Of a DNA stretch of 64,000 nt, positions 26,624 to 61,683 are shown in pieces. The position numbers and the translations under genes were made by a program. The notes beneath the pieces were generated by a model that saw only the letters and a program-made list of their open reading frames with translations, searched no databases and was not told where the DNA came from. Location of the stretch: NCBI GenBank assembly GCA_016191995.1, contig JACPVA010000031.1, forward strand, positions 23,627 through 87,626, written 5' to 3'. The stretch is from Burkholderiales bacterium (GTDB taxonomy: Bacteria > Pseudomonadota > Gammaproteobacteria > Burkholderiales > Burkholderiaceae_C). Within the stretch, counting starts at the first letter, position 1, and the number at the start of each line of letters is the position of its first letter.

Positions 26624-27853
26624 TCATGGCCGACGCCGCGCATAGACCAGCAGCTCGTCGCCCCAGCCGCGCCGCTCGATCGGCTCGAGGGCGAACCGGG
26701 TATGGCGCGCGAGCGCGTTCGTCAGCGGCTGTGCGCGCTGCAGCAGGTCCAGCCATCTCTGCAGCAGGCCGGAGGACGTGGGCGCACCGCGATCGGCGGC
26801 ACGCGGCGCTGCGGCATCGGCCGCGGCGGGCGCCTCGGGCCTGGCAGCCGTTCCCGCCAAGGCAGCCTCGGCCCGTTCGCCCGCTGGCAGCGGCGCCGGC
26901 GCCGGCACGGCCCCACCCTGCCCCCGCGTGCGCAGCCGCAACCGCAGCTCGTTGAGCGCGTGGCCGGCCCACATAAGCGTGTACTGGTAGAGGTTGTTGC
27001 CGTCGCCGCGCTGGGTGCGAACCTCGACGACCTCGAAGCCGCAGTCGCGCAGCAGGCGCGGCAAGGTGCTGCGCGAGAAGAACCACAGGTGCGTGGGCGG
27101 GCACATCCACGGCCACCACACGCCGGCCACGCGCGATCCGAAGCTCTCGGCGTTCGGCACCCGGATCCCGAGCACCCCGCCTGGCCTGAGCAGGCTCGCG
27201 AGCCTGAGGATCTGGGCCTTGGGGTCGCGCGAGTGCTCCAGCACATGCCACAGGATCGCCGCGTCGAAGCTGCCCGGCTCCAGAGGGGCCTCGCCGAGGT
27301 CGCTGCCGAAGACCTCCAGCCCGAAGTGCTCGCGCGCATAGGCCGCCGCGGCACCCGAGAGCTCGACCCCCGCGACGTCCCATCCCATGTCCCGCGCCAG
27401 CGCGAGCGAATGCCCGTAGGCGGCCCCGACCTCGAGCAGGCGCCCGCGCTCGGGCCGCCAGCGCTCGAGCTCGGCGATGCGTGCGATGTTGCGCTCGCGC
27501 GCGGCGGCGTAGCGCTCGAGCGACACCGCGTAGTTGCGCGCGTAGTGGTCGCTGAGCTCCTGCGCGGTCGGGGTCGGCCAGACGAACTGCAACCCGCAGC
27601 CGAGGCAGCGGTAGACCGGGTAGCCGCGCTGCACGAAGCGCTGCGCGCGCGAGGTCGAGCCGCAGACGAGGCACGCGCTGCCCGGCGGCGGGGCCGCCGC
27701 GGCGGCCCCGCCGGCCGGCGCGGCGGGCAAGTCGGTCGAGGTCTCCACGGGTCCTCGCTGGGGTGCTGGCGGTGGCGCCGGGTCGAGCGGGCGCGGGCGA
27801 CCGCCCTGCCCCGCGGCGGCGCGGGGCCCGCGGGATTCGTCCGGGGCCTTCAT
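26624..27853 (-). CDS. class I SAM-dependent methyltransferase with N-terminal Cys-rich zinc site
   Basis: Residues about 60-95 carry CLVCGST and YRCLGCGLQFVWP, a two C-x-x-C zinc knuckle typical of sugar C-methyltransferases and related EPS enzymes. The SAM domain follows: LLEVGAAYGHSLALA, VAGVELSGAAAAYAREHF, FDAAILWHVLEHSRDP and LRPGGVLGIRVPNAES. The last 110 residues are Ala/Pro-rich, then helical. The first about 58 residues are low-complexity. The start overlaps the stop of the sulfatase-fold gene by four bases (ATGA). The likely role is methylation of a sugar or lipid-linked intermediate of the same operon. Confidence 0.85.
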   Translation of the reverse strand: MKAPDESRGPRAAAGQGGRPRPLDPAPPPAPQRGPVETSTDLPAAPAGGAAAAAPPPGSACLVCGSTSRAQRFVQRGYPVYRCLGCGLQFVWPTPTAQELSDHYARNYAVSLERYAAARERNIARIAELERWRPERGRLLEVGAAYGHSLALARDMGWDVAGVELSGAAAAYAREHFGLEVFGSDLGEAPLEPGSFDAAILWHVLEHSRDPKAQILRLASLLRPGGVLGIRVPNAESFGSRVAGVWWPWMCPPTHLWFFSRSTLPRLLRDCGFEVVEVRTQRGDGNNLYQYTLMWAGHALNELRLRLRTRGQGGAVPAPAPLPAGERAEAALAGTAARPEAPAAADAAAPRAADRGAPTSSGLLQRWLDLLQRAQPLTNALARHTRFALEPIERRGWGDELLVYARRRP

Positions 27854-30030
27854 GGCGCGACGCAGCCGGTGCCGGCGGGCGCGGCCGCCGGTGCCTGGGG
27901 CGCCGAGCCTGCCGCCGACGCCGCCGCACGCGGCCGGCCGAGCTCGTCGGCAAGCAGCCAGCCGTCGAGGATCGCGCGCAGCCGCGCCGCCACGTCCGGA
28001 TACCGGGCCAGCACGTCGCGCTGGCAGCCCGGGTCGTCGGCGATGTCGAACAGCTTGTACAGCGCGCCACGGTTCAACGGCTGGTACGAGAGCTTCCAGT
28101 TGCCGACGCGCACCATGCGGTCCTTGGCCTCGACGACGACCTGCATGTAGCGCGGCTTCAGCGCGATCATGCCGCTCGCCTTGTCGGGGACCTCGAGCAG
28201 CTCGGGCAGGTGCGGGTAGCGGATGTGGTCGTCCGGGGTGCCGGGCAGGTCGGTCAGCCAGACGCCGGTCTCGTAGAAGGCCGGCAGCTCCTGCACCAGG
28301 GGCTCGCCGCGCAGCAGCGGCGCCAGCGACACGCCCTCCACCGTCGGCGGCACAGGCACGCCGGCCAGCTCGAGCAGCGTCGGCGCGAGGTCGATCGTGC
28401 GCACGACCTCGCCCGCCTTGCGCGGCTGCGGGTGGCGCGGGTCGGCGACGATGATCGGCACCCGGGCCGAGAAATCGCCCACCGCGGTGTTGCCCTGGCC
28501 CCAGGTCTCGTGCTCGAAGAACTCGAACCCGTGGTCGCTGTAGACGACGACGATGGTGTCGTCGGCCAGCCCCGAGGCCTGCAGGTAGTCGAGCACGCGA
28601 GCGACCTCGTCGTCGAAATTGCGCACGCAGCCGTCGTACAGGTCGATGATCTGTTCCAGGTCGAACTCGGACCTGGGCTCGCCCTGGCGGCGGATGATCT
28701 CCCAGGGGTCGCGCAGCTTGGCCATGCCGAACTTGGACTCGCCGCGGTAGGCGGGGTCGGAGAACATCTGGTAGTAGGGGTGCTTGGACGTGAACGGCGG
28801 GTGTGTCGTCGCCATGAACGACATGATGAAGAAGGGTTCGTCCTTGCGCGCCAGGCGCGCGATCATGCGCCGTGTGTCCAGCCCGATCTCCTCGGTCAGC
28901 GGGATGCCGCCCAGGTAGTAGACCTCGGGCAGGAAGACCTTGCCGAGGCGCCCCTGGGTGAACAGCGACAGGAACAGCCGCAGGTCCTTAGGCCCCTGGC
29001 GCAGCAGGTACTTGATATTCCACTGGTCGGTCGGCATGTCGGCGTGCTCGAAGCCGAAGTCGAACTTCTCGGCGTCCGAGCCGGCCCAGTCGCAGACGAT
29101 CGCCGACCGGTAGCCCACCCCGCGCAGGATGCTGGGCAGCGCGGGCACGGGCAGCCGCGTCTGCTCGGGCGTGACGAAGGTGTCGCGCACGCCGTGCGTA
29201 TGCGGCCAGGTGCCGGTCAGCATCGACACCACGCTGGGCGCGGTGCGCGCACAGGGGACGTAGCAGTCGGTCAGGATGGTCGCGCGCCGCGCCAGGCGGT
29301 CCAGCGCCGGCGTCAGCGCGCGGCGGTAGCCGGCGCCGCCCAGGCGGTCGGCGCGCAGCGTGTCGGAGCCGATCATCAGGATATTGGGCCGGCCGGGCTT
29401 CTTCGCCTGCCGCACGGGCGCGGGCTCGGGCCCGCTGCCGGCCAGCCGCCAGGCGGCCACGCCTGCGGCGGCCAGCACGAGCACGACGGCGGCCGCGATC
29501 CAGCCGCCGCGCGACGCCAGCACCGCCGCGCCGGCGGCCAGCCACAGCGCGAGCACGCCGAACAGCAACGCGTCGAGCAGCCTCAGCCGGGCCGGCGTCA
29601 GCCGATCCCAGACCGGCAGCAGCCGCGCCGTCGAGTAGAGGAAGGAGCTCGCGATGACGCCGGGCGAGTGCAGCAGCGTGTGCAGGAACTGCCGCGCCGT
29701 CAGCAGCAGGATGGCGGCCAGCGCTGCCGCTGCGGCCGCGATGGCATCGAAGGGCGCGCCCAACACCAGCGTGCCCAGCGCGTAGGCCAGCGCCCCGGTG
29801 AGCCCAAGCGCGAACGCGATGACGAACGCGTAGAAGGCCAGCCGCGCGAGCGACCCCGCTAGATAGAGCCGGTAGTGCCGCAGCACCTCCTCGGTCATCT
29901 GCGGGCCGGTGCGCGTGAAGTCGCTCAGCGACTTGACGAGGACGAGCAGCGTGAAGACCCCGGCCGCCACCGCATCGGCCACGGTGGCGCGCAGCATGGT
30001 GTCCAGCGCGAGGGCGTCGAACGGGTTCAC
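27850..30030 (-). CDS. membrane sulfatase-fold protein with Thr nucleophile, probable phospho-group transferase
   Basis: 726 residues. The first 200 hold five or so hydrophobic helices; from about 212 an alkaline-phosphatase/sulfatase fold begins with NILMIGSDTLRADRLGGAGY, where Asp223 is a metal ligand. The active-site loop reads CARTAPSVVSMLTG. Type I sulfatases need C/S-x-P-S-R there for formylglycine; this protein has Thr263-Ala-Pro-Ser-Val, so it cannot be a standard sulfatase. Thr nucleophiles are typical of EptA- and LtaS-type phosphoethanolamine or phosphoglycerol transferases, which also have N-terminal membrane helices. Metal site VVVYSDHGFEFFEHETWGQG is intact. The GTG start is 30030. 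It sits between an ACP and a methyltransferase in one operon. Hydrolase activity is a weaker alternative. Confidence 0.8.
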   Translation of the reverse strand: MNPFDALALDTMLRATVADAVAAGVFTLLVLVKSLSDFTRTGPQMTEEVLRHYRLYLAGSLARLAFYAFVIAFALGLTGALAYALGTLVLGAPFDAIAAAAAALAAILLLTARQFLHTLLHSPGVIASSFLYSTARLLPVWDRLTPARLRLLDALLFGVLALWLAAGAAVLASRGGWIAAAVVLVLAAAGVAAWRLAGSGPEPAPVRQAKKPGRPNILMIGSDTLRADRLGGAGYRRALTPALDRLARRATILTDCYVPCARTAPSVVSMLTGTWPHTHGVRDTFVTPEQTRLPVPALPSILRGVGYRSAIVCDWAGSDAEKFDFGFEHADMPTDQWNIKYLLRQGPKDLRLFLSLFTQGRLGKVFLPEVYYLGGIPLTEEIGLDTRRMIARLARKDEPFFIMSFMATTHPPFTSKHPYYQMFSDPAYRGESKFGMAKLRDPWEIIRRQGEPRSEFDLEQIIDLYDGCVRNFDDEVARVLDYLQASGLADDTIVVVYSDHGFEFFEHETWGQGNTAVGDFSARVPIIVADPRHPQPRKAGEVVRTIDLAPTLLELAGVPVPPTVEGVSLAPLLRGEPLVQELPAFYETGVWLTDLPGTPDDHIRYPHLPELLEVPDKASGMIALKPRYMQVVVEAKDRMVRVGNWKLSYQPLNRGALYKLFDIADDPGCQRDVLARYPDVAARLRAILDGWLLADELGRPRAAASAAGSAPQAPAAAPAGTGCVAP

Positions 30031-30105: not shown

Positions 30106-30384
30106 TCAGCGCCGCGGCGCGCCGCCCTTGCGCGCGAGCAGGAAGGCGGCCATGGCGTCGATCGACCCGAGGTTGTCGATATTGATCTCCTCCTGCGCCA
30201 GCGGCAGCGCGTAGGCCTGCTCGAACCAGACGACGAGCTCGAGCACGGCGCTGGAGTCGAGCAGCCCGGTGGCGGGGATGATGTCGTCGTCGGCGATGCC
30301 GCTGGCGTCCATGCCCAGCGTGCGCGCCAGCGCGACGACCTTGTCGCGGATCGCGGCCTTGACGGCCTCGGGTTGCAGGTTCAT
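30106..30384 (-). CDS. acyl carrier protein
   Basis: A 92-residue ACP-fold protein. The phosphopantetheine site is GLLDSSAVLELVVWFEQ, where Asp43-Ser44 followed by x-x-x-x-E-L match the usual D-S-L-x-x-x-E-L (Ser44 is the attachment site). The helix IRDKVVALARTLG before it and EEINIDNLGSIDAMAAFLL after it complete the four-helix fold. Its ATG overlaps the E2 stop by four bases, so it is co-translated with a lipoyl-bearing acyltransferase. It is not in a fatty-acid or polyketide setting: no ketosynthase or malonyl transferase is nearby. It may carry an acyl group destined for the polysaccharide. Confidence 0.88.
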   Translation of the reverse strand: MNLQPEAVKAAIRDKVVALARTLGMDASGIADDDIIPATGLLDSSAVLELVVWFEQAYALPLAQEEINIDNLGSIDAMAAFLLARKGGAPRR

Positions 30385-31535
30385 GCGGCGGCTCCCTCGG
30401 TCGGCTGCGGCGGCTGCGGCGGCTGCGCCAGCGCCTGCAGCAGCTGCACGACGTCGGCCCCCGACAGCAGCCGGTGGTCGTAGGTGGCGCCCAGCACCGC
30501 GCGGCCCGTGGCGCGCGGCGCCGAATGGGCGACGATCAGCCCGGTGTGCGGCGGCAGGATAGGGACATGGCGGCTGACCTGCCAGCGCGCCATGCTGGTG
30601 AAGGCGATCGTCGCGCCCGTCAGCTCGGCGCTGCCCAGCCGGTGCGCCAGCGCCCGGCGCTGCAGCGCGCCCAGCGCATCGACGAAGCCGGCGGCGTCGA
30701 GCCGCGCGGCGTCGCGCACGACGGCCAGGTACAGCGTCGCGCCGGCCTGCACCGTGAAGCCGAGGTTGACCTCGGTGTAGCGGTAGCGGCGCTCGCCGAC
30801 GATGGCGGCGTTCAGCCTCGGCTGCTGCGCGGCCAGCTCGACCAGCCGCCAGGCCATCAGCGGCATCAGCGGCGGCATCAGCAGGCGATGCCGATCGGCG
30901 AAGCCCTTGGCCCAGGCGTCCCAGGGCTGCGGGTCGTATTCCAGCTCGATATAGCCCGGCACGGCGTGGTCGCGGTGCCACAGCACGGTGGCGAGCATGC
31001 CGTGCTCCTCGGGCGACAGGGTCTCGAAGACGCCTGCGGCGCCGGGTGCGCGCTCGGCGGCCGCGGCCGGCGTCCGTGGCGCACTGCCAGCCGGCGCGCC
31101 GCCGGGCGCCGCAGCGCCCTGCGACACCAGCCAGGTGTCGATGTCGGCCTCGGTCAGGCGCGCAGCGGCGGCGGGGACCTGCTCGGCGCGCAGGCCGAGC
31201 GCCTTCAGCCGCGCGCGCGCGCCGGCGGTCGGCCGGCCCGGCGCGCCGGCAGCGGCCTGCACCAGGGCGGCGTCGGCCTCGGGGACGGGCTCGTCGGGGT
31301 GGTCGCCCAGCCACAGCAGCACCGAGCCGACCGCGGCCTGCGCGCCGAGCTCGGCGACGACGGCCAGCACATGGCCGCCGCGCTCGGCCTGGACCTCGAG
31401 CACCGACTTGTCGGTCTCGACCGCGCCGACGAGCTGCCCGGGCTCGACGATGTCGCCGGGCCCGACCTTCAGCTCGACGACGGTGACGACGTCGTCGTTG
31501 TTGTTGACGCGCGGGACGCGAAGCGGGTGCGGCAT
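30381..31535 (-). CDS. 2-oxoacid dehydrogenase E2-like lipoyl acyltransferase with altered catalytic motif
   Basis: Residues 1-78 form a lipoyl domain with GAVETDKSVLEV (Lys43 is the lipoylation site). Residues about 100-137 resemble a peripheral-subunit-binding domain (RARLKALGLRAEQVP then RLTEADIDTWL). The rest is an acyltransferase of the chloramphenicol acetyltransferase fold. The catalytic motif near the end reads GATYDHRLLSGADVV; E2 enzymes have H-x-x-x-D-G, so the conserved Asp is replaced by Ser while His remains. The protein is short (384 residues) for an E2. Its stop overlaps the ACP start, and it follows the E1 gene by 20 bases. It probably receives an acyl group from E1; the acceptor may be ACP in place of coenzyme A, which is inference. 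Confidence 0.85.
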   Translation of the reverse strand: MPHPLRVPRVNNNDDVVTVVELKVGPGDIVEPGQLVGAVETDKSVLEVQAERGGHVLAVVAELGAQAAVGSVLLWLGDHPDEPVPEADAALVQAAAGAPGRPTAGARARLKALGLRAEQVPAAAARLTEADIDTWLVSQGAAAPGGAPAGSAPRTPAAAAERAPGAAGVFETLSPEEHGMLATVLWHRDHAVPGYIELEYDPQPWDAWAKGFADRHRLLMPPLMPLMAWRLVELAAQQPRLNAAIVGERRYRYTEVNLGFTVQAGATLYLAVVRDAARLDAAGFVDALGALQRRALAHRLGSAELTGATIAFTSMARWQVSRHVPILPPHTGLIVAHSAPRATGRAVLGATYDHRLLSGADVVQLLQALAQPPQPPQPTEGAAA

Positions 31536-31555
31536 GCGGCGGGGTTGGGGTCAGG

Positions 31556-33601
31556 TCAGAACATGTCGGCGACGCGCTCGACGATGGCGTCGACGTCCGG
31601 GATGAGCTGCCGCTCGAGGCTGCGCGCCGACGCGATCGGCACCGGCGGGGTGCCGATGCGGATCAGCGCGCCGGCGAATCCGTCCTCGGCCAGGCAGGCG
31701 GCGATCTCGGCGGCGATGCCGTACTCGGCGTGCGACTCCTCGACGATCGCCACCCGCGCGCGCTGCAGCAGGTGGCCGATCAGCGTGCCGCGCGGCATCG
31801 GCGCGAGCAGCGACGGGCTGACGATCTCGACCGCGAGCTCCTCCTCGTCCTCGAGCCTGCGCGCGGCCTCCTCGACGACCGGCAGCATGCCGCCGAAGCC
31901 GACAAGCGTGACATCGGGCGCCTGCGCGCCGCGGCGCAGCGTCGGGAACAGCTCCGCGGCAGCGTCGCCATCGTGCGCCGGCAGCTCGGCATAGCCGGCG
32001 CGGTCGAGCTTCTCGCCGTACAGCAGCTTGTGCTCGAGGAAGACGACCGGGTAGGGCCAGCGCAGCGTGGCGTCGACGAGCATGCGCCCGGCCGGGTGGC
32101 GGTGGCTGGGGTAGACGACGGTCAGCCCCGGCACCGAGCCGAGCAGGTTCTCCGGGCTCTGGCTGTGCGTCGGGCCGTAGCCGCGCCGGCCGCCGCAAGG
32201 CGTGCGGATGACCAGCGGCACCGGCATGGCGTCGAACATGCCGGGGAACTTGACCGCGTGGTTGTAGAGCTGGTCCATGCACAGGGTCAGGAAGTCGGCG
32301 AACATGACCTCCATCACCGGCCGCAGGCCCGCCAGCGCGAGGCCGATCGACGCCCCGGTGACGCCGGCCTCGCTGATCGGGGTCGAGATGACGCGGCCGG
32401 CGAAGCGCGTCGACAGCCCCTGCGTGACCTTGAACGCGCCGCCGTAGGGCTCGTGCAGGTCCTGCCCGATCAGCAGCACCTCGGGTGCCGTCTGCAGCAG
32501 ATGGCCGAGCGCGGCGTTGAGCGCCTGGCGCATGCCGGTGCCGGGCGGCGGGTCGGGTAGCGCCGGCGGGGCCGACGACAGCGGCAGCGCGAAGATATGC
32601 CGCGGCGGCTCGGCGTAGCGGGCCTCCGGCGAGGCCTCGGCGCGCTCGCGCACCTGCTCGACGAAGCGCGCGTTGCGCGCCTCGATGCGCTCGCGCGTGG
32701 CGTCGGGCAGGCGGCGGCCGAGTGCGGCCAGCGGGTCGCGGCGGCGGATGCCGTCGAGCTCCTCGCCGTCGCGCAGGTCGTCGCCCTTGCTGTGCGGGCC
32801 CATGCGCTGCGTGTCGAGGACGAGCAAGCCGGGGCCGCCGGCGGCGCGCAGCTCGGCGACGGCGGCGGCGACGCGGTCGCAGAACTCGGGGTCGTCGTCG
32901 GCGAAGCGCCAGGTCGGCAGCCCGAAGGCGGCGCCGCGCGCCTCCAGGCTGCCGCCCATGGTCTCGCGCGTGTAGGTGGTCTGCGCGATGCCGTTGTTCT
33001 CGACCACGACGAGCAACGGCGCGCGCCAGACCGACGCCAGGTTCATGCTCTCGTACAGCAGACCCTGGCCGAGCGTGCCGTCGCCGACGATCGTCGCCAC
33101 CAGCGCGCCGCCGCCGCGCAGCTTGCGCGCCAGCGCCAGCCCGGCACCGATGCCGGTCATGCCGCCTTGCACGCCGTTGCTGTGGAAGTGGCCGGCGGCG
33201 ATATGCTGGCTGCCGCCGCGGCCGCGGCAGACGCCGGCCTCGCGGCCCATGATCTCGGCGACCAGGCCGACGAAGTCGCCCGCATAGGTCAGGAAGTGGC
33301 CGTGGTTGCGGTGGTTGGACAGCACCGCGTCGTCGGCATGGTCGAGCGCGCGCACGACCGCCATCGCGGCCAGCTCCTGGCCGATGCAGGTATGCGTGGT
33401 GCCCGACACCAGCCCGCGCGCGAACTGGTCGAGGATCAGCTGCTCGGTCGAGCGCACGAGGTGGCCCCAGGCGAACAGCGACTCGGCGTCCAGCCCGATC
33501 AGCGGCCGGCCCGAGGGCGAGCGGCCGAAGCCGGGCAGCGGCGGCGCGGCGCCGGGGCCGAGGGCGTCGAGGACGTCGAGGGGCGAGGCGATTCGATCCA
33601 T
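31556..33601 (-). CDS. fused E1 alpha-beta 2-oxoacid dehydrogenase (thiamine diphosphate-dependent)
   Basis: A 681-residue fusion of the two E1 subunits. The alpha part (residues about 35-320) has SNHRNHGHFLTYAG, GRGGSQHIAAGHFHSNGVQG and the ThDP motif GDGTLGQGLLYESMNLASVW ending in VVENNGIAQ. The beta part (about 365-680) has TPISEAGVTGASIGLALAG, MEVMFADFLTLCMDQLYNHA, GYGPTHSQSPENLLG and LEHKLLYGE. It decarboxylates a 2-oxoacid and passes the acyl group to the lipoyl arm of the E2 encoded next. Fusion of alpha and beta is uncommon in housekeeping pyruvate complexes. No E3 gene is present, so the housekeeping lipoamide dehydrogenase would be needed for turnover. It is the first gene of the leftward operon. 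Confidence 0.92.
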   Translation of the reverse strand: MDRIASPLDVLDALGPGAAPPLPGFGRSPSGRPLIGLDAESLFAWGHLVRSTEQLILDQFARGLVSGTTHTCIGQELAAMAVVRALDHADDAVLSNHRNHGHFLTYAGDFVGLVAEIMGREAGVCRGRGGSQHIAAGHFHSNGVQGGMTGIGAGLALARKLRGGGALVATIVGDGTLGQGLLYESMNLASVWRAPLLVVVENNGIAQTTYTRETMGGSLEARGAAFGLPTWRFADDDPEFCDRVAAAVAELRAAGGPGLLVLDTQRMGPHSKGDDLRDGEELDGIRRRDPLAALGRRLPDATRERIEARNARFVEQVRERAEASPEARYAEPPRHIFALPLSSAPPALPDPPPGTGMRQALNAALGHLLQTAPEVLLIGQDLHEPYGGAFKVTQGLSTRFAGRVISTPISEAGVTGASIGLALAGLRPVMEVMFADFLTLCMDQLYNHAVKFPGMFDAMPVPLVIRTPCGGRRGYGPTHSQSPENLLGSVPGLTVVYPSHRHPAGRMLVDATLRWPYPVVFLEHKLLYGEKLDRAGYAELPAHDGDAAAELFPTLRRGAQAPDVTLVGFGGMLPVVEEAARRLEDEEELAVEIVSPSLLAPMPRGTLIGHLLQRARVAIVEESHAEYGIAAEIAACLAEDGFAGALIRIGTPPVPIASARSLERQLIPDVDAIVERVADMF

Positions 33602-33852
33602 GGTCGGTACGGGCGCGGCGCGGCATCGTCGTGCCGGCCGCGGGGACTGCGGATTCTGGGCCAGCGCGCTCGCGCCGCGAGCCGGCGCGGCGCAGCCGGC
33701 GGCGGCGATGACCAAATCTTGCCGGTTCGCCGCTGCGGCCGAGCCGGCGGCGCCGATTTGTACCGGCGGCGCGCGCCGCCGACGCACGCGGCCCGGGTGG
33801 CTGACGCTACATTCGGCCGGATCGACCCGATCGACCCGATGCAGCCGCGCCG

Positions 33853-34713
33853 ATGGCCCTGCCGACCCTGCACCCGATCCACGACGACGACCTGCCCGAG
33901 TTCTGCCGCTTCCTGACCGAGCACCTGAGCGCCGAGCGCTCGGCGCAGGACTGGGCACAGGCCTTCCTGCAGGGCTGGTGCGCCGACAAGCCGAACAACG
34001 GCTTCCTGCTGCGGCACGAGGGGCGCATCGTCGGCGGCATCGGCGCGATCTACGCCGAGCGCATGCTGCGCGGGCGGGCCGAGCGCTTCTGCAACATCAC
34101 GAGCTGGTGCGTGCTCGACGAGTTCCGCACCCAGAGCGGGCGGCTGGCGATGGCGGTGGTGTCGCAGCCCGGCTGGCATTTCACGGACCTGACCCCGACC
34201 GAGGTCGTCTCCAGGACGCTGCAGTTCTTCAAGTTCAAGCCGATGGACGAGCGCCACCTGGTGTGGCCGAACCTGCCCTGGCCCGGCGTCCTGGCCGGCG
34301 TGCGGGTGGCGACCGACCCCGAGCACATCGCCGCGCTGCTGGCGCCCGACGATGCGCGCACCTTCCGCGACCACCGGCATCTGCCCTGGCTGCGCCACCT
34401 CGCGGTCGGCCGCGGCGACGCCTGGTGCCATGTCGTGTGGCGAACGACGCGGCTGAAGAACCTGACCGGGGCGATGGTGCTGGCCTTCAGCGACGCCGAG
34501 CTCTTCCTGCGCCACCGGATGACGCTGGCCAGCCACCTGCTGCTGCGCCACGGCATGCCGTTCACGCGCGTCGAGGCACGGCTGCTGCCGCGGCTGCCGC
34601 GGCCTGCTCTCGAGCTGGCCGGCTACCGCAACAAGGTCTTCCGCAGCGAGACGCTGCAGCCGGCCGACATCAGCAACCTCTATAGCGAGCTGGTGGCGCT
34701 GGACCTGTCATGA
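33853..34713 (+). CDS. GNAT-like acyltransferase domain protein
   Basis: A 286-residue protein. The N-terminal 100 residues follow the GNAT fold: LHPIHDDDLPEFCRFLTEHL, GFLLRHEGRIVGGIGAIYAE and a CNITSWCVLDEFRTQSGRLA segment in the place of motif A, although the R/Q-x-x-G-x-G/A acyl-CoA loop is weak. The second half is less clear and may be a duplicated, degenerate GNAT. The ATG lies 251 bases from the divergent E1 start. It overlaps the deacetylase gene by four bases. Similar proteins occur in polysaccharide operons as putative sugar N- or O-acyltransferases; the acyl donor could be CoA or the nearby ACP. No donor is proven. Confidence 0.65.
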   Translation: MALPTLHPIHDDDLPEFCRFLTEHLSAERSAQDWAQAFLQGWCADKPNNGFLLRHEGRIVGGIGAIYAERMLRGRAERFCNITSWCVLDEFRTQSGRLAMAVVSQPGWHFTDLTPTEVVSRTLQFFKFKPMDERHLVWPNLPWPGVLAGVRVATDPEHIAALLAPDDARTFRDHRHLPWLRHLAVGRGDAWCHVVWRTTRLKNLTGAMVLAFSDAELFLRHRMTLASHLLLRHGMPFTRVEARLLPRLPRPALELAGYRNKVFRSETLQPADISNLYSELVALDLS

Positions 34714-35783
34714 GGCACCCCGAGGCCGCGCCCGCGATGGCGCACGACCGCAGCACGCCCGGCTGGCCCGCCGGGCGCGAGCCGCTGCGGCTGCCGGCAT
34801 CGACGCGGCCGATCTTGACGGTGGTGATCCACACCGAGGAGGAGTTCGACTGGGACAAGCCGCACGACCGCGGCGCGACGACCGTCGAGCACCTGCGCCA
34901 CCTCGGCCGCGCGCAGTCGCTGTTCGACGAGTTCGGCATCGTGCCGAACTATGTCGTCGACTACCCGGTGGCGGCGGCCGGCGACGCCGCGGCACTGCTT
35001 AAGGGCTATGCCGACAGCGGCCGCGCACTGATCGGCGCCCACCTGCACCCCTGGGTCTCGCCGCCGCATGCCGAGCCGGTGAACGCCTTCAACTCCTACC
35101 CGGGCAACCTGCCGCCCGAGCTCGAGGAGGCCAAGCTGCGCGAGCTGACGGAGCGGATCGAGCACCGCTTCGGCAGCCGGCCGCGGACCTACCTGGCCGG
35201 GCGCTACGGGTTCGGGCCGAATACGGCGCGCATCCTCGAGGCGCTGGGCTACGAGGTCGACATCAGCCCGGCGGTGCCGATCGACTTCTCGGCCGACGGC
35301 GGGCCGGACTACTCGGGCTTCACGAGCCATCCATACTGGTTCGGCCAGCGGCGGCGGCTGCTCGGGCTGCCGGGCAGCGGCGGCTATGTCGGTGCGCTGC
35401 GCCGCGGCGGCACGCCGCTGTACCGGCGGCTGACCGCGCCAGCGATGCGGCGCGCGAAGATCGCCGGCGCGGTGGCGCGGCTGCGGCTGCTGGAACGCAT
35501 CCGGCTGTCGCCGGAGGACTACGACGGCTCCGCGATGCAACGGCTGACGGCGACGCTGCTGGCCGACGGGGTACGTATCTTCGTCTTCAGCTTCCACTCG
35601 CCGTCGGTGATGCCGGGCTGCACGCCGTATGTCCGCAACGACGCCGAGCTGGAGCGCTTCCTGGCACGCTGCCGGCGCTACTTCGAGCATTTCATGCGCA
35701 GCCTCGGCGGCCAGACGATGACGCCGCTGCAGCTCAAGGACCTGCTGCAAGGCCAGGCAGCGACACGAGGAGCCACGCCATGA
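34710..35783 (+). CDS. WalW-like polysaccharide deacetylase family protein
   Basis: NodB-homology-like protein of about 357 residues. [20 protein letters not shown] opens the domain and matches the WalW type, in which H-T-E-E-E-F-D-W replaces the usual catalytic [22 protein letters not shown] supplies the H-x-H-x-W metal site and [20 protein letters not shown] the next conserved motif; [18 protein letters not shown] ends it. The metal ligands differ from classical deacetylases, so activity may be altered. It overlaps the previous and next genes by four bases each and is translationally coupled to HddA. Confidence 0.82.
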
Positions 35784-36811
35784 TCATCCGCGCACGCGCG
35801 CCGCTGCGCCTGGGGCTGGGCGGCGGCGGCACCGACGTGTCGCCCTACTGCGACCTGCATGGCGGGTTGGTGCTGAACGCGACGATCGACAAGTACGCCT
35901 ACGCCGTCATCGAGCCGCTGGAGCCCGCCGACGGTGTGCAGTTCACGGCCGCCGACAAGCAGGAGCAATGGCGCGGCGAGGCCGAGCCGGTGCTGGCGCT
36001 GGACGGCCGGCTCGACCTGCACAAGGGCGTCTACAACCGCATCGTGCGCGACTTCAATGGCGGCCGGCCGCTGCCGCTGCGGATGACGACGCACACCGAC
36101 GCGCCGCCGGGGTCGGGGCTGGGGTCGTCGTCGACGCTGGTGGTATCGATGATCAAGGCCTTCGTCGAGTGGCTCAACCTGCCGCTGGGCGAGTACGACA
36201 TCGCGCGGCTCGCGTTCGAGATCGAGCGCCACGACGTCGGGCTGTCGGGCGGCCGCCAGGACCAGTATGCGGCGACTTTCGGCGGCTTCAACTTCATGGA
36301 GTTCCACCCGCAGGAGCGGGTCGTCGTCAACCCGCTGCGGATCAAGAACTGGATCGTCTCGGAGCTGGAGGCGTCGCTGCTGCTGTACTTCGGCGGCGTC
36401 TCGCGCGACTCGGCGCGCATCATCGACGAGCAGGCCGGCAACGTGAAGGCTGGCGACGGCGGCGCGATCGACGCCATGCACGCGCTCAAGCACGAGGCGC
36501 TGGCGATGAAGGAGTGCCTGCTCAAGGGCGACTTCGACGGTTTGGTCGAGTCGATGGAGGCCGGCTGGCAGGCCAAGAAGCGCATGGCGCGCAGCATCTC
36601 CAACCCGCAGATCGACGCCAGCTACGAGCTGGCCAGGCGCGCCGGGATGCGCGCCGGCAAGGTCAGCGGCGCCGGCGGCGGCGGCTTCATGATGCTGCTC
36701 GTCGACCCGGTGCGGCGCATGGACGTGATGCGCGCGCTGGCGCAGACCAACGGGCAGGTTTTCAGCTGCCACTTCACCGAGATCGGGACCCAGGGATGGA
36801 AGATCTACTGA
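35780..36811 (+). CDS. hddA: D-glycero-D-manno-heptose 7-phosphate kinase (GHMP family)
   Basis: Makes D-glycero-alpha-D-manno-heptose 1,7-bisphosphate. The GHMP kinase markers are complete: [20 protein letters not shown], the ATP-binding [40 protein letters not shown] and the C-terminal [20 protein letters not shown]. Length (343 residues) fits HddA. The three genes needed with it for GDP-heptose (gmhA, hddC, gmhB) follow in the same direction, which separates it from galactokinase or fucose kinase relatives. The ATG overlaps the deacetylase stop by four bases. Confidence 0.93.
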
Positions 36812-37401
36812 GCGAGGGCGTCGCCGGGCAGTTCCGGCAGACGGCGGACAACCTGCGCGCGATGAGCGAGGACGCAGCACTGCGCGCGGCGGTGGTCGCG
36901 GTGGCCGGCGCCTGCGTCGAGGCGCTGCGGCGCGGTGGCAAGATCCTGTTCGCCGGCAACGGCGGCAGCGCCGCCGACGCCCAGCACCTGGCGGGCGAGC
37001 TCGTCAGCCGCTTCGACTACGACCGCCCGGGGCTGGCGGCGTTCGCGCTCTCGACCGACACCTCGGTGCTGACCGCGATCGGCAACGACTACGGCTACGA
37101 GCGCGTCTTCGCGCGCCAGGTCGAGGCGGTCGGGCAGCGCGGCGACGTGCTGGTCGCGATCTCGACCTCGGGCCGATCGCCGAATATCCTGGCCGCGCTC
37201 GAAGCGGCGCGCGCGAAGGGCCTGGTGACGGTCGGCATGACCGGGCGCGGCGGCGGGCGCATGCCCGAATACTGCGACCACCTGCTGCGCACGCCGTCGG
37301 ACGCGACGCCGCGCATCCAGGAGGGGCACATCGCGATGGGCCACGCGATCTGCTGGTTGATCGAGCGCGCGCTGTTCCCGCAGCCGGCACCGGCGGCGTA
37401 G
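36796..37401 (+). CDS. gmhA: sedoheptulose 7-phosphate isomerase (SIS domain)
   Basis: Converts sedoheptulose 7-phosphate to D-glycero-D-manno-heptose 7-phosphate. The SIS fold shows [75 protein letters not shown] and the C-terminal [13 protein letters not shown] with the metal-binding His. Asn53-Gly-Gly-Ser and the Asp/His/Gln ligands are in the expected places. The ATG at 36796 lies 16 bases inside the end of hddA. The 201 residues are normal for GmhA. Confidence 0.94.
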
Positions 37402-38127
37402 ATGCAGGCGATCGTGCTGGCCGGCGGGCTGGGCACGCGGCTACGAAGCGCCGTGCCCGACCTGCCGAAACCGATGGCGCCGGTGGCGGGGCGGCCGTTC
37501 CTGGCCTGGATCCTCGACCAGCTCGAGGGCGCCGGCTTCGCGCGCGCGGTGCTGGCGGTGGGCTACCGGCACGAGGCGATCCGCGACCACTTCGGCGACC
37601 GCCACGGCGCGCTGGCGCTGCGCTACAGCGTCGAGGACCGGCCGCTGGGCACCGGGGGTGCGCTGCGGCTGGCGTGCGATCAGGCCTACGACCAGGCGGA
37701 CGACCCGGCGGGCGACGACGCGATCTTCGTGCTCAACGGCGACACCTTCGTCGAGCTCGACCACCGCGCGATGCGCGCGGCTCACGGTGCGGCGGGCGCC
37801 GCACTGAGCATCGCGGTGCACCGCGTCGACGACACCGCGCGCTACGGCGCGCTGGAGCTGCGCGACGGACGCGTGTGCGGCTTCATCGAGAAGGGCCGGC
37901 GCGGCCCGGGCTGGATCAACGCCGGCGTCTACCTGCTGGCGCGCGGGCTGCTGCGGCAGCTGCCGGCGGGCCGCGCGCTGTCCTTCGAGCAGGAACTGCT
38001 GGTGCCGCAGGTGCGGTCGCTGCGCCCGCCGGCCTTCGTCGCCGAGGGCCTGTTCATCGATATCGGGGTGCCCGAGGATTACGCGCGGGCGCAGGGCTTG
38101 TTCGCGCGGCGTGCAGCGCGGCACTGA
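37402..38127 (+). CDS. hddC: D-glycero-D-manno-heptose 1-phosphate guanylyltransferase-type nucleotidyltransferase
   Basis: Activates heptose 1-phosphate to the GDP sugar. IVLAGGLGTRLRSAVPDLPK then PMAPVAGRPFLAWI is the sugar-nucleotidyltransferase signature (G-G-x-G-T-R-L ... P-K-P). FVLNGDTFVELD is the metal-binding strand, FIEKGRRGPGWINAGVYLL the sugar-binding part and LSFEQELLVPQ follows. The 241 residues fit HddC. The ATG follows the gmhA stop without a gap. The kinase-isomerase-transferase order points to GDP-D-glycero-alpha-D-manno-heptose, although ADP or another nucleotide cannot be excluded from sequence alone. Confidence 0.9.
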   Translation: MQAIVLAGGLGTRLRSAVPDLPKPMAPVAGRPFLAWILDQLEGAGFARAVLAVGYRHEAIRDHFGDRHGALALRYSVEDRPLGTGGALRLACDQAYDQADDPAGDDAIFVLNGDTFVELDHRAMRAAHGAAGAALSIAVHRVDDTARYGALELRDGRVCGFIEKGRRGPGWINAGVYLLARGLLRQLPAGRALSFEQELLVPQVRSLRPPAFVAEGLFIDIGVPEDYARAQGLFARRAARH

Positions 38128-38200
38128 TCAGCGCGCATCGCGGCCCGGGACTCGCAGCGAGCGATCCGCGACAATCGCACGCATCGACCGTGGAGGCCCC

Positions 38201-38428
38201 ATGCAACTCACCGCTGTCCTCACGCCCGCCGAGGAAGGGGGCTTCGTCGCGCTGAATCCGGAGACCGGCACCACGTCGCAGGGCGAGACGGTCGCGGAGG
38301 CGATCGCCAACCTCAAGCAAGCGACGGAGCTCTATCTGCAGGAGTTCCCCCTCGCCTCGACCGGCCACCCGCTCGTCACGGTGTTCACTGTGGCCGAGCC
38401 GGCCGATGCCCTCGTTGCCAGCCCGTGA
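38201..38428 (+). CDS. hicB: HicB-family antitoxin, orphan
   Basis: A 75-residue HicB-fold protein: LTAVLTPAEEGGFVALNPET is the first hairpin (usually a-v-x-x-x-E-E-G-G-Y-V-A-x-x-P) and TVAEAIANLKQATELYLQE the helix. A good ribosome binding site (GGAGG, 38192-38196) lies four bases before the ATG. No complete hicA is next to it; the antitoxin-first order would put one at about 38406, where only a short fragment remains. It sits inside the heptose operon between hddC and gmhB, so it was probably inserted there. It lacks a C-terminal DNA-binding domain. Confidence 0.8.
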   Translation: MQLTAVLTPAEEGGFVALNPETGTTSQGETVAEAIANLKQATELYLQEFPLASTGHPLVTVFTVAEPADALVASP

Positions 38429-38498
38429 GGCCGCCGCCCCACTCTTCGCCCAGGACGTTCTGCAAGCGCGGGCCGCCCCCGGCCGCACGGTGACGCCC
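38406..38498 (+). pseudogene. possible HicA toxin stub
   Basis: An ATG overlapping the hicB 3' end opens MPSLPAREAAAPLF, which resembles the usual HicA beginning M-P-x-L-P-x-x-x-x-R-E-x-x-R-A-L. After about 12 codons the likeness ends, and the frame runs straight into gmhB without a stop. The position after hicB is right for a toxin partner. The match is short, so this is only a suggestion. Confidence 0.3.
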
Positions 38499-39095
38499 AT
38501 GCCCCCCGCGCGCGCCCTCTTCCTCGACCGCGACGGTGTCGTCAACATCGACCGGCACTATGTCCATCGCGTCGAGGACTTCGAGTTCGTCGACGGGATC
38601 TTCGACCTGTGCGCCCGGGCGCGCGCGCTCGGCTACCGGCTGGTCGTCGTCACGAACCAGGCCGGCATCGCCCGCGGCTACTACGGCGAGGCCGACTTCC
38701 AGCGGTTGACGCAGTGGATGCTCGGCGTGTTCGAGGCGCGCGGCACGCCGATCGACCGCGTCTACCACTGCCCCTACCACCCGACCGCTGGGCTGGGCGC
38801 GTACCGGCGCGAGTCCTTCGACCGCAAGCCGAACCCCGGCATGCTGCTGCGCGCGCGCGACGAACTGGGGCTGGACCTGGCGGCGAGCGCCTTCATTGGC
38901 GACAAGGATTCGGACATGGCGGCCGGCCGTGCCGCCGGGGTCGGGCGGCTGATCCGGCTGCTGACGCCGGACGACGAAGCGGCTGCGCCGCAGGCGGCCG
39001 ACGTGACGAAGGTCGCCAGCCTCGCAGAGGCGGCGGCGCTGCTCGAGCCTGATGATTTACCGCTCAGGCAAAGCTCGCCGATACGCGCAGATTGA
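38499..39095 (+). CDS. gmhB: D,D-heptose 1,7-bisphosphate 7-phosphatase (HAD family)
   Basis: Removes the 7-phosphate from heptose bisphosphate, the step between HddA and HddC. ALFLDRDGVVNIDRHYVHR contains the nucleophile motif D-x-D-G-V-x-N; VVVTNQAGIARGYYGEADF, FDRKPNPGMLLRARDELGL and FIGDKDSDMAAGRAAG complete the HAD-IIIA set. The zinc loop is reduced to YHCPYHPTAGLGAYRRES: Cys-x-x-His is present but the second Cys pair of E. coli GmhB is missing. The frame is open upstream to 38406; ATG 38499 (or GTG 38490) starts just before the first strand. The 3' end overlaps the convergent RES gene. Confidence 0.9.
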   Translation: MPPARALFLDRDGVVNIDRHYVHRVEDFEFVDGIFDLCARARALGYRLVVVTNQAGIARGYYGEADFQRLTQWMLGVFEARGTPIDRVYHCPYHPTAGLGAYRRESFDRKPNPGMLLRARDELGLDLAASAFIGDKDSDMAAGRAAGVGRLIRLLTPDDEAAAPQAADVTKVASLAEAAALLEPDDLPLRQSSPIRAD

Positions 39096-43204: not shown

Positions 43205-44062
43205 TCAGCGCGGCGGCGCCGGGTACCAGGTCACGCGCACGCCGAGGCCCAGCCCGCGCAGCATGCCGTCGCGCAGCCGGCGTGCCAGTGCCTGTTCGTG
43301 CCGCAGCCCGCGCTGCTTGACCTGGTACAGCCGCCTCTTGTGCGGCTGCACCTGTCCGAAGCGCTCGCCGCGCGCGAGGCGGTCGACGAAGTCGGCGTAG
43401 ACGCCGGCACTGGTCCGCACGCTGCGCCAGAAGAGCTTCAGCTCGTCGTCGTCGGGCAGCACCTCGGGGCTGACATGCGCGATCAGGCCGCCGGTATCGA
43501 TGCCGGCGTCGATCCAGTGCAGCGTGCAGCCGACCTTCTCGGGCTCGCCGTTGTACAGCGCCCAGAACGTGCAGTCGGCGCCGCGGTACTCGGGCGACAG
43601 GCCGCCGTGCAGGTTGGCGATGCCCAGCCGGCCCATGGTGAGCAGCTCGCCGCGGATCAGCGAGGTGCCGAAGACGGCGATCAGGTCGGGCTGCAGCTCG
43701 CGCGCCAGCGCGACGACGTCGGGGTGGTTGATGTGCGGCACCTCTCGCACGAGATCGGGCCGCCCCAGCCGCGGCACGGCGTCGCCGAAGAAGAACTTCG
43801 CCTCGCTGCCGCCGGTGTAGCGGCGGCGGTCGCGCAACCAGCGCCAGGTCTTGCGGAAGAAATTGTCCGGCCGCAACTGCTTCGCCAGCTTCTTCCACGA
43901 GAAGTCCGCGCCGGTCTCCTGCACGATGGCCTGCACGTCGCCGGCGCGGCACAGCGCGTTGGCGACGAACAGGTGGCGCGGGCTGCGGCCGCACAGCACC
44001 ATGAGCTTCAGGGGGGGTGCGGCGCCAGCGGGGCCTGGCGCCACGCTCGCCGGATCAGCCAC
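43205..44062 (-). CDS. formyltransferase-family protein (sugar N-formyltransferase-like)
   Basis: Uses 10-formyltetrahydrofolate to formylate an amino group. Only the N-terminal catalytic Rossmann part of the Fmt/ArnA family is present, with no tRNA-binding domain, so it is not the housekeeping enzyme. LIAVFGTSLIRGELL, IANLHGGLSPEYRGADC and LHWIDAGIDTGGLIAHVSPE supply the catalytic Asn-His-Asp (the last in IDAGID). The protein overlaps the toroid gene by eight bases. A formyl group on an amino sugar of the XrtA-locus glycan is a reasonable reading, but the substrate is not shown. Confidence 0.85.
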   Translation of the reverse strand: MADPASVAPGPAGAAPPLKLMVLCGRSPRHLFVANALCRAGDVQAIVQETGADFSWKKLAKQLRPDNFFRKTWRWLRDRRRYTGGSEAKFFFGDAVPRLGRPDLVREVPHINHPDVVALARELQPDLIAVFGTSLIRGELLTMGRLGIANLHGGLSPEYRGADCTFWALYNGEPEKVGCTLHWIDAGIDTGGLIAHVSPEVLPDDDELKLFWRSVRTSAGVYADFVDRLARGERFGQVQPHKRRLYQVKQRGLRHEQALARRLRDGMLRGLGLGVRVTWYPAPPR

Positions 44063-60048: not shown

Positions 60049-61683
60049 TCATTGCCCATCCGCGCCGGACGTCGCGGCCAGCGAGGACAGCCCCGGGCCA
60101 TCGCGAGCCGCCACGAGCGCCTGCTCGATGCCGGGCAGGTTCGCGTCGAGGAACTCCTGCAGGACTTCACCCGGGTCCCGTTGGCCATCGTGCAGCGTGT
60201 GCAGCACCATCACCGCCGACTCGTCGCCGCGCCCGGCAAGCCGCATCAGGCCGCCGTAGAGCTTGGCCGGAACGTCGGCTTCGATCCAGCGCCCGTTGAC
60301 CCAGTAGACCCTCCAGATCTGGATGCGCTGCCTGGCGCCGGACACGCGCCCGGCGCGCAGCTCGGCCGTTCGAACGTCGATGCGCTGGCCGGCGGCCTGC
60401 ACCGGCCGCTGGCCGCTGCCGGCCAGCGCCCAGTCGGGGTCCTTGGAATTGATCAGGATGTTGGCCTGGCTGATCAGCTTGCGCTTGGCGTCCTGCGCCC
60501 GGTAGTACGCGAGGTACAGGCCGACGTAGCTGCCGTCGCGCCCGAAGACCTGGGCGCTCTCGGCCGAGGGTCTCTGGTACAGCGGCTTCCACGCCGGCAG
60601 CGACACCGACTCCGGCGCCAGGACAGGCTGCCACCCGCCGGTCGCGGCGACCGCGGTCAGCACCGGCGTATCGTCGCGCTCCAGCGCGGCCAGCGCGGAG
60701 CCCGCGGCGTGCGGGGCGACCGCGACCATGACGGCGCCCGCCGTCATCACCGCCAGGGCGGCGAGCGACGCCGCCGCGCCACCGGCCGCCGGCCGCGTGC
60801 CCGACTGCGGTGATACCTCGCTCGCCTCCGGCTCGGCCCAGCGCATGCCGATCATGAACATGACCAGGATCACGAAGCCGAAGAAGACCCAGCCGTAGAT
60901 GATGTGGTCGACCCCGGTGGCGATCCGGTTGTCCGACAGGTGGCCCAGCATGACGATCATGTAGGCGCGCAGCCAGTTGGCGAGGATCGGCACCAGGATC
61001 GAGACGCCGACGAAGATCCAGCGCCGCCGCGGCGAGCGGTAGTTGAGGTAGGCGAACAGCGACCCGACCATGACCGACGCGATCAGGTAGCGCACGCCGC
61101 TGCAGGCCTCGACGACCGACCAGCTCCCGCTCGGGATCTCGAAGTGCAGCCCCTCGCGCACCACCGGGACCCCGCTCAGCCGCAGCGCGGCGACGGTGAA
61201 GTCCGCCGTGCCCTGCATCAGCGGCTCCAGCAGGAAGTCGCCGAACGGGACGCCGAAGAACAGGAAGCCGAGCGGGAACATCAGCGCACGCGCGACCTCG
61301 GCCCCGAGCACGGCCGGCACGCTCAGGACGAGCAGCGCGACGAAGGCGAACTGCGCGGCGGCGTTGACGACGACGAGGTCGGCCAGGAACCACACGGCGG
61401 CGGCACCCGCCATCAGCAGCAGCGGCCAGGCGGCCGGCCGCGGCGCGAGCGTGGCGAGATGTTCGCGGCGCCTCCAGACCAGCCACAACGCCAGCGGCAG
61501 CACCAGCACACCGTGCGCATAGGTGTCGGAGAACATCCACATGTCCCACATCGCGCGCGCGGTATCGCGGTACCACAGCCCGATCCAGGCGGCGACCGCG
61601 ATCCACAGCGGCAGCGCACGCCGCCAGGCAAGGGCCGAGTCGGCATGGGTGGCGGCGGGGGCTTGCAAGGGGGTGGCGGTCAT
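60049..61683 (-). CDS. xrtA: exosortase A fused to an EpsI domain
   Basis: 544 residues. The N-terminal 300 form the polytopic exosortase with catalytic Cys194 (SVVEACSGVRYLIASVM), Arg239 (ANWLRAYMIVMLGH) and His260 (ATGVDHIIYGWVFF). The C-terminal 220 residues (from about 320) form the periplasmic EpsI domain, with YRAQDAKRKLISQANILINS and RIQIWRVYWVNGRWI. Exosortase A cleaves PEP-CTERM proteins and is always found with an EPS locus. No PEP-CTERM substrate gene is present in this window, so targets lie elsewhere. Its ATG overlaps the Stp1 stop by four bases. Confidence 0.96.
   Translation of the reverse strand: MTATPLQAPAATHADSALAWRRALPLWIAVAAWIGLWYRDTARAMWDMWMFSDTYAHGVLVLPLALWLVWRRREHLATLAPRPAAWPLLLMAGAAAVWFLADLVVVNAAAQFAFVALLVLSVPAVLGAEVARALMFPLGFLFFGVPFGDFLLEPLMQGTADFTVAALRLSGVPVVREGLHFEIPSGSWSVVEACSGVRYLIASVMVGSLFAYLNYRSPRRRWIFVGVSILVPILANWLRAYMIVMLGHLSDNRIATGVDHIIYGWVFFGFVILVMFMIGMRWAEPEASEVSPQSGTRPAAGGAAASLAALAVMTAGAVMVAVAPHAAGSALAALERDDTPVLTAVAATGGWQPVLAPESVSLPAWKPLYQRPSAESAQVFGRDGSYVGLYLAYYRAQDAKRKLISQANILINSKDPDWALAGSGQRPVQAAGQRIDVRTAELRAGRVSGARQRIQIWRVYWVNGRWIEADVPAKLYGGLMRLAGRGDESAVMVLHTLHDGQRDPGEVLQEFLDANLPGIEQALVAARDGPGLSSLAATSGADGQ

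What the first reader, a model, noticed from the sequence alone, without database searches (positions are those of the whole stretch)
30106..33601. E1-E2-ACP cassette embedded in a polysaccharide operon: candidate acyl-ACP supply system for glycan decoration
A fused E1 alpha-beta, a short E2 with lipoyl domain and an acyl carrier protein are consecutive, with an ATGA overlap between E2 and ACP and only 20 bases between E1 and E2. No E3 and no fatty-acid or polyketide genes are near. A GNAT-like gene diverges from the E1 gene, and an MBOAT/SGNH pair is in the same window. Known 2-oxoacid dehydrogenases pass the acyl group to CoA; here ACP placed directly after E2 suggests transfer of a 2-oxoacid-derived (possibly branched or short) acyl group to ACP, then to a sugar. 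This is inference; the gene order and domains are seen.
Basis: partly seen in the sequence, partly recalled or inferred. Interest (0 to 1): 0.82.

Follow-up and report, generated by a model that had tools for sequence, protein, structure and literature searches.

The report
Acyl-ACP maker in polysaccharide gene region
A bacterial surface-polysaccharide gene region holds a pyruvate-dehydrogenase-like E1, an E2 and an acyl carrier protein side by side, a set found together in related bacteria beside a predicted acyltransferase and often a predicted sugar deacetylase; it likely loads an acyl group made from a 2-oxoacid onto the carrier protein, from which the group would be passed to a sugar.

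Summary
The E1-E2-ACP cassette is real and exactly where reported. It recurs: of 17 distinct E2-bearing loci inspected, E1 lies beside E2 in 16 and the ACP in 16 (the exception is a contig-edge locus). A gene predicted to encode a tandem-GNAT acyltransferase accompanies it in 15 of 17 (divergent in 12), and a predicted CE4-type polysaccharide deacetylase in 12 of 17. In the window these two genes overlap each other and a GDP-heptose gene, inside an exosortase-A (XrtA) exopolysaccharide region. E1 and E2 keep core catalytic residues, but this E2 family lacks the Asp of HxxxDG (0 of 17, against 67 of 69 other E2s read). No E3 gene is nearby; every one of the 17 genomes has one elsewhere. Best reading: E1/E2 prime the ACP and the GNAT uses the acyl-ACP, probably on a deacetylated amino sugar. 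Carrier-protein priming by E1/E2 is already in print for quinocarcin, naphthyridinomycin, scleric acid and pepteridine pathways, so the chemistry has precedent; the glycan-region setting, the GNAT/deacetylase partners and the E2 signature look new. ACP acylation, the acyl group and the acceptor are untested.

The parts
31556..33601 (-). E1, fused alpha-beta, PDH-like 2-oxoacid decarboxylase
   Evidence: Pfam and NCBIfam matches; ThDP motifs and catalytic His conserved
30381..31535 (-). E2 with one lipoyl domain (residues 6-74) and acyltransferase domain (223-370 matched); DHRLLSG in place of DHRxxDG
30106..30384 (-). Acyl carrier protein, Ser44 as likely phosphopantetheine site
   Evidence: PF00550 over cut-off; Asp43-Ser44 invariant in 17 rows
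33602..33852 (.). Intergenic stretch between E1 and the divergent GNAT gene
   Evidence: gene calls; consensus scan found no sigma-70-type site
33853..34713 (+). Predicted tandem-GNAT acyltransferase
   Evidence: AlphaFold model pLDDT 76, Foldseek and VIA-align matches; with the trio in 15 of 17 loci
34710..35783 (+). Predicted CE4-type polysaccharide deacetylase; overlaps the GNAT gene by 4 bases and the HddA-like gene by 4 bases
   Evidence: AlphaFold model pLDDT 63, matches to deacetylases; with the trio in 12 of 17 loci
35780..39095 (+). GDP-heptose-type sugar-nucleotide genes: HddA-, GmhA-, HddC- and GmhB-like (context)
   Evidence: NCBIfam best matches; only GmhB passes its cut-off
27850..30030 (-). 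Sulfatase-superfamily membrane protein, next same-strand gene after the ACP (context)
   Evidence: PF00884
46805..48064 (-). XrtA-associated O-glycosylation ligase (context)
   Evidence: TIGR03097 over cut-off
60049..61683 (-). Exosortase A (context)
   Evidence: TIGR03109 over cut-off

Best explanation
The E1-E2-ACP set likely makes an acyl-ACP directly from a 2-oxoacid: E1 would decarboxylate the acid, the lipoyl arm of E2 would carry the acyl group, and E2 would pass it to the carrier protein instead of CoA. The neighbouring tandem-GNAT protein is predicted to use this acyl-ACP as donor. Its acceptor is probably an amino group on a sugar of the exopolysaccharide or its precursor, exposed in most loci by the predicted CE4 deacetylase, so that acetyl would be exchanged for another acyl group. 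The dihydrolipoyl arm would be re-oxidised by the distal E3 of the genome. Shown: gene order, conservation, kept catalytic and carrier residues, loss of the HxxxDG Asp, absence of a nearby E3. Predicted from structure models: the GNAT and CE4 folds. Inferred: ACP as acyl acceptor, GNAT as user, sugar as final acceptor, non-acetyl acyl group.
For: Trio order in 16 of 17 distinct loci, GNAT gene in 15 and CE4 gene in 12. Lipoyl Lys, catalytic His and Ser, and ACP Ser invariant. E1 catalytic His positions kept. E2 signature without Asp in all rows against 67 of 69 other E2s with Asp. An ACP-motif screen around the 78 non-orthologous E2 loci gave two matches, neither ACP-like by eye; both orthologs were found. 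No Lpd-family match near the trio but at least one in each of 17 genomes. In G133 the ACP is followed by the XrtA hydrolases TIGR03101 and TIGR03100. In the window GNAT, CE4 and HddA-like genes overlap. Published carrier-protein priming by E1/E2 and the NodB/NodA deacetylate-and-acylate-from-ACP precedent.
Against: No assay. Four loci (G446, G376, G1010, G1036) showed no glycan gene other than CE4 among the genes I annotated. CE4 is absent within 40 kb in G082, G133 and G202. Asp at this E2 place is Asn in A. vinelandii E2p and D379A of E. coli E2o keeps 9.5% activity, so its loss does not prove a new acceptor. In G1016 no ACP was found beside E2. In G1036 the trio runs into a methyltransferase gene.
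Confidence: 0.42

Rival explanations
1. Acyl-ACP is made, but the GNAT attaches the acyl group to an amino acid or lipid headgroup, giving an N-acyl amino acid or aminolipid rather than a decorated glycan.
For: The ACP's best NCBIfam match is an ornithine-lipid ACP family, far below cut-off (32 against 130 bits). [quoted passage not shown]
Against: The GNAT gene is directly followed by the predicted polysaccharide deacetylase in 12 of 15 loci that have it, and in the window by overlapping sugar-nucleotide genes.
Confidence: 0.2
2. E1 and E2 make an ordinary acyl-CoA, and the ACP is charged by another enzyme such as an acyl ligase; the genes are together only because they serve one pathway.
For: The DHR triad of CoA-using E2s is intact. 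TIGR03098 ligases lie within about 6 kb of the trio in G082, G133 and G202. A PaaK-like ligase gene is in the window at 45325-46812.
Against: At E <= 1e-120, TIGR03098 was found in 3 of 18 genomes searched (one a duplicate) and not in the window's own. ACP is directly after E2 in 16 of 17 loci.
Confidence: 0.2
3. The acyl-ACP feeds a DltB-like MBOAT that O-acylates the glycan at or across the membrane; the GNAT does something else.
For: An MBOAT homolog of 58520-60004 is in the fetched stretch of 5 of 17 loci (window, G133, G1003, G1018, G1019); in G1018 it starts about 0.4 kb after the ACP on the same strand. That Dlt systems use a carrier-protein donor is recalled knowledge.
Against: 5 of 17 loci against 15 of 17 for the GNAT gene; in the window it is about 25 kb from the trio.
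Confidence: 0.12

Closest known systems
Glycolicacyl-ACP systems: QncN/QncL/QncM (quinocarcin), NapB/NapD/NapC (naphthyridinomycin), SclQ1-4 (scleric acid)
   Same: E1-type ThDP protein(s), lipoyl/acyltransferase E2 and a small stand-alone ACP, acyl group delivered to the ACP (PMC6335953 and PMC7570522, passages)
   Different: Those serve nonribosomal peptide or related small-molecule pathways and draw on a ketose phosphate; here the setting is a glycan region with GNAT and CE4 partners and a fused E1. Sequence kinship was not tested: no such sequence was at hand.
Pepteridine E1 and E2-T-C fusion (Photorhabdus, plu2796)
   Same: E1/E2 proposed to prime a carrier domain in place of CoA, with E3 from the host and a 2-oxoacid substrate supported by feeding; an amide is then formed (PMC5384830, passages)
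   Different: Carrier is a fused T domain and a C domain forms the amide; here a separate ACP and a predicted GNAT.
Branched-chain acyl-ACP synthase from metagenomic DNA (Craig and Brady 2011)
   Different: The paper itself was not available, so architecture and sequence were not compared.
NodB/NodA of Nod-factor synthesis
   Same: Sugar N-deacetylase followed by an N-acyltransferase that takes its acyl group from an ACP (PMC5080398, passages)
   Different: No E1/E2 there as described in those passages; kinship of the GNAT to NodA was not shown.
XrtA-associated ACP/ligase/hydrolase neighbourhood (TIGR03098-TIGR03101)
   Same: Lies beside the trio in three loci, where hydrolase genes follow the ACP
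   Different: 19 of 20 fetched TIGR03100 loci have no E1, E2 or ACP of this type within 1.5 kb; the one that does is G082, a trio genome.

Membership tests
Canonical 2-oxoacid dehydrogenase complex (acyl-CoA forming) | E1 with ThDP motif and catalytic His residues | tested here: met
   GDG and NN motifs, His70, His270 and THSQS conserved in 16 E1 rows, one a duplicate, with the cut G1036 left out
Canonical 2-oxoacid dehydrogenase complex (acyl-CoA forming) | E2 with lipoyl Lys and DHR catalytic motif | tested here: met
   Lys43, Ser314 and Asp-His-Arg 353-355 in 18 of 18 rows, one a duplicate
Canonical 2-oxoacid dehydrogenase complex (acyl-CoA forming) | HxxxDG Asp (or Asn) of E2 | tested here: not met
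   Ser 14, His 2, Asn 1, Ala 1 of 18 rows; 67 of 69 other E2s have Asp
Canonical 2-oxoacid dehydrogenase complex (acyl-CoA forming) | E3-binding domain in E2 | tested here: inconclusive
   No PF02817 match in the window E2; 0.083 below cut-off in L009; 4 E2s scanned
Canonical 2-oxoacid dehydrogenase complex (acyl-CoA forming) | Own E3 gene in the cluster | tested here: not met
   Lpd-family matches at E <= 1e-60 only on other contigs, or about 200 kb away in G133
Carrier-protein-priming E1/E2 systems (nap/qnc/scl, pepteridine) | E1 and E2 genes with a carrier protein in the same cluster, no E3 | tested here: met
Carrier-protein-priming E1/E2 systems (nap/qnc/scl, pepteridine) | Acyl group delivered to the carrier protein | not testable with these tools
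   needs an enzyme assay
Carrier-protein-priming E1/E2 systems (nap/qnc/scl, pepteridine) | Sequence kinship to NapD/QncL/SclQ4 or Plu2796 | not tested
   sequences not at hand; one attempt to search an actinomycete group was not accepted by the tool
NodB/NodA-type deacetylate-and-reacylate pair | CE4-type N-deacetylase | tested here: inconclusive
NodB/NodA-type deacetylate-and-reacylate pair | NodA-family acyltransferase using acyl-ACP | tested here: inconclusive
   tandem-GNAT fold; no NodA match in Pfam or NCBIfam scans
XrtA/PEP-CTERM exopolysaccharide locus | Exosortase A and associated glycan genes in the region | tested here: met
   TIGR03109, 03097, 03108, 04063, 03088, 03087, 03019 over cut-off in the window; XrtA over cut-off in 16 of 17 distinct trio genomes

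The most novel reading that the evidence does not exclude
A dedicated acyl-exchange cassette for surface glycans: a PDH-like E1 with a polar pocket and an E2 rebuilt to face a carrier protein turn a polar 2-oxoacid (for example hydroxypyruvate, giving glycolyl) into acyl-ACP, and a tandem GNAT puts that acyl group on an amino sugar freed by a CE4 deacetylase. It would be the first known route from a 2-oxoacid through a carrier protein to a polysaccharide.
Probability: 0.27. Interest if true: 0.8.

Novelty: new variant of a known kind. Interest (0 to 1): 0.6.

Why it matters
If right, some bacteria decorate exopolysaccharides with acyl groups drawn straight from 2-oxoacids, bypassing acyl-CoA, and carrier-protein priming known from natural-product clusters also serves cell-surface glycans. 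The cassette is compact (five genes) and its E2 has a readable mark (DHRxx, then not Asp, then Gly), so it can be found, expressed and assayed directly. It also gives XrtA exopolysaccharides a concrete modification to look for.

Tried and rejected
Branched-chain acyl supply: the E1 alpha part scores 120 bits against human PDH E1 alpha, 72 against a Thermus 2-oxoacid dehydrogenase and 45-48 against BCKDH E1 alpha; the beta part separates them less (156 PDH to 125 BCKDH). Not favoured, not excluded.

Trio ACP as a standard part of XrtA loci: TIGR03100 occurs in 29 of 120 family genomes. Of 20 loci fetched (1.5-kb flanks) only G082, itself a trio genome, had this ACP by tblastn or in an ACP-motif screen read by eye. 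An ACP elsewhere in those clusters is not excluded.

XrtA as predictor of the trio: XrtA is over cut-off in 16 of 17 distinct trio genomes, but also in 6 of the 7 trio-less genomes of the same genus that I tested (of 11), and it lies within about 40 kb on the same contig in five trio genomes only. The trio is an optional add-on, not a core XrtA part.

Literature: searches listed no paper that, from title, abstract start and term counts, joins an E1-E2-ACP set to exosortase or exopolysaccharide genes; most subscription papers are outside that library. Profile search of the CE4 protein against PDB sequences gave nothing useful. Promoter/terminator scan: no promoter-like site, one terminator-like site inside E2 against 0.5 expected. 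Correlated divergence of the five proteins (r 0.93-0.99 over 12-16 loci; 0.54-0.72 within Gallionellaceae) fits co-inheritance but also species history, so I do not lean on it. No NodA row appears among the fold matches listed for the GNAT model; that excludes nothing.

G1017 (E2 fragment) was not inspected, so 17 of 18 distinct E2-bearing genomes were.
Full report
What is there. The window lies on contig C138 of a 4.55-Mb assembly. On the minus strand E1 (31556-33601), E2 (30381-31535) and ACP (30106-30384) follow one another, with 20 bases between E1 and E2 and a 4-base overlap of E2 and ACP. E1 is one chain with the alpha (E1_dh) and beta (Transket_pyr, Transketolase_C) parts; E2 has a lipoyl and a 2-oxoacid_dh domain; the ACP passes the PP-binding cut-off. 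The next same-strand gene is a sulfatase-superfamily protein (27850-30030). Diverging from E1 are a 286-aa gene, a 357-aa gene and then HddA-, GmhA-, HddC- and GmhB-like genes; the 286-aa and 357-aa genes overlap by 4 bases, as do the 357-aa and HddA-like genes. Of the four sugar-nucleotide matches only GmhB passes its family cut-off. The minus-strand genes from 46805 on include exosortase A, the XrtA O-glycosylation ligase, amidotransferase, three glycosyltransferases and FemAB over their cut-offs.

How general it is. A protein search with E2 gave 1,235 matches among the 7,992 candidates scored, 120 of them listed. A 17-row E2 profile found relatives at E <= 1e-60 in 4 of 250 genomes of the family, 4 of 399 of the order, 1 of 369 of the class (own genome included each time) and 12 of 23 of one genus, and at E <= 1e-50 in 2 of 299 of the phylum, own included. 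That genus belongs to Gallionellaceae as labelled in the record of L009, because G1010 is the same assembly. The set is rare and patchy in sequenced genomes. Of 18 distinct E2-bearing genomes 17 were inspected. E1 is upstream in 16 (the contig of G1016 starts 54 bases before E2; in G1036 E1 is cut by the contig start). ACP is downstream in 16; on the 4.1-kb contig of G1016 none was found. The GNAT gene is present in 15, divergent from E1 in 12 and downstream of the ACP in G082, G133 and G202; the CE4 gene is present in 12. Both are missing on the short contigs of G1016 and G1036. G082, G133 and G202 lack CE4 in 40 kb; there two hydrolase genes follow the ACP, scored as TIGR03101 and TIGR03100 in G133, and a TIGR03098 ligase is within about 6 kb.

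Neighbourhood. Glycosyltransferase, nucleotide-sugar or XrtA-type genes were identified in the fetched stretch of 11 of 17 loci, by family match or by clustering with a matched gene: for example GDP-mannose dehydratase, an epimerase, GT2 and PMT genes in G1013, HddC- and GmhB-like genes in L010, an O-ligase in G1003 and G133. G1018 has an MBOAT gene about 0.4 kb after the ACP, and G1016 a GT2-like neighbour by eye. G446, G376, G1010 and G1036 showed none among the genes annotated, apart from CE4 in the first three; not every gene there was scanned. In G1036 the trio is followed by a methyltransferase gene. Lpd-family matches (E <= 1e-60) exist in all 17 genomes, over cut-off in 15, and none is near the trio.

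Do the enzymes look active? Human E1 alpha His63 and His263 align with His70 and His270, conserved together with the GDG and NN motifs and the beta THSQS. Three further pocket residues of human PDH, Phe61, Tyr89 and Met200 (named in PMC6168537, passages; placed by counting along the alignment), align with Thr68, His97 and Gln207, the same in 16 E1 rows, one a duplicate and cut G1036 left out. The pocket should be more polar than that of PDH; the substrate is inferred, not known. In E2, Lys43, Ser314 and Asp-His-Arg 353-355 are invariant in 18 rows, one a duplicate. E. coli E2p uses H603, D607 and S551 (PMC8421416, passages). At the D607 place the 18 rows have Ser 14, His 2, Asn 1, Ala 1; of 69 other E2s read in the loci, 67 have Asp, one Ser, one Phe, and in 9 of 80 loci the motif was not read. 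Natural Asn at this place in A. vinelandii E2p and 9.5% activity of E. coli E2o D379A (PMC5986005, passages) make this a family mark, not proof of a new acceptor. An ACP-motif screen around the loci found ACPs beside the two orthologs; two of the other 78 gave matches that do not look like ACPs.

Mechanism. The simplest reading is that E1 and E2 prime the ACP, a distal E3 re-oxidises the lipoyl arm, and the GNAT spends the acyl-ACP. Carrier-protein priming by E1/E2 is in print: reported as shown for the qnc enzymes and proposed for scl (PMC6335953, passages), described for nap and its dnacin relatives (PMC7570522, passages), and proposed with feeding support for pepteridine, where E3 is thought to come from the host (PMC5384830, passages). 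For the acceptor, the linked CE4 protein recalls NodB/NodA, where a sugar N-deacetylase is followed by N-acylation from an ACP (PMC5080398, passages). Re-acetylation after deacetylation would be futile, so a non-acetyl group is expected; that is inference. The chain as a whole gets 0.42; the ACP-loading step alone I put near 0.65.

Verdict. Observation confirmed, interpretation partly supported. I rate it a new variant of a known kind: known priming chemistry, with a new family mark, new partners and a new setting. Searches listed no paper on it.

Noticed in passing
L126:969-3275 (G1036): A distant trio (E1 cut by the contig start) runs into a methyltransferase gene, with no GNAT or CE4 homolog on the 7.5-kb contig, so the trio may serve other pathways as well.
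   Followed up: partly
Gallionellaceae loci L102-L107, L118-L124: The five-gene module sits at different places (beside an adenylosuccinate-lyase-like and a DNA polymerase III subunit gene, an argininosuccinate-lyase-like gene, GDP-sugar genes or an O-ligase), as a mobile cassette would.
   Followed up: partly
L100:11862-16818 and L101:558-2272 (G133): TIGR03098 ligase and TIGR03099 decarboxylase lie beside E1, and TIGR03101 and TIGR03100 hydrolases follow the ACP: a possible link between the unexplained XrtA small-molecule genes and an ACP.
   Followed up: partly
window 43205-44002 (-): Formyltransferase-like protein (best NCBIfam matches far below cut-off) among the XrtA glycosyltransferase genes.
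   Followed up: no
window 44055-45305 (-): 416-aa protein whose only NCBIfam matches are weak ones to squalene/oxidosqualene cyclases.
   Followed up: no
window 45325-46812 (-): PaaK/DVU_1553-like AMP-dependent ligase gene with counterparts in the trio loci G133 and G1003.
   Followed up: no
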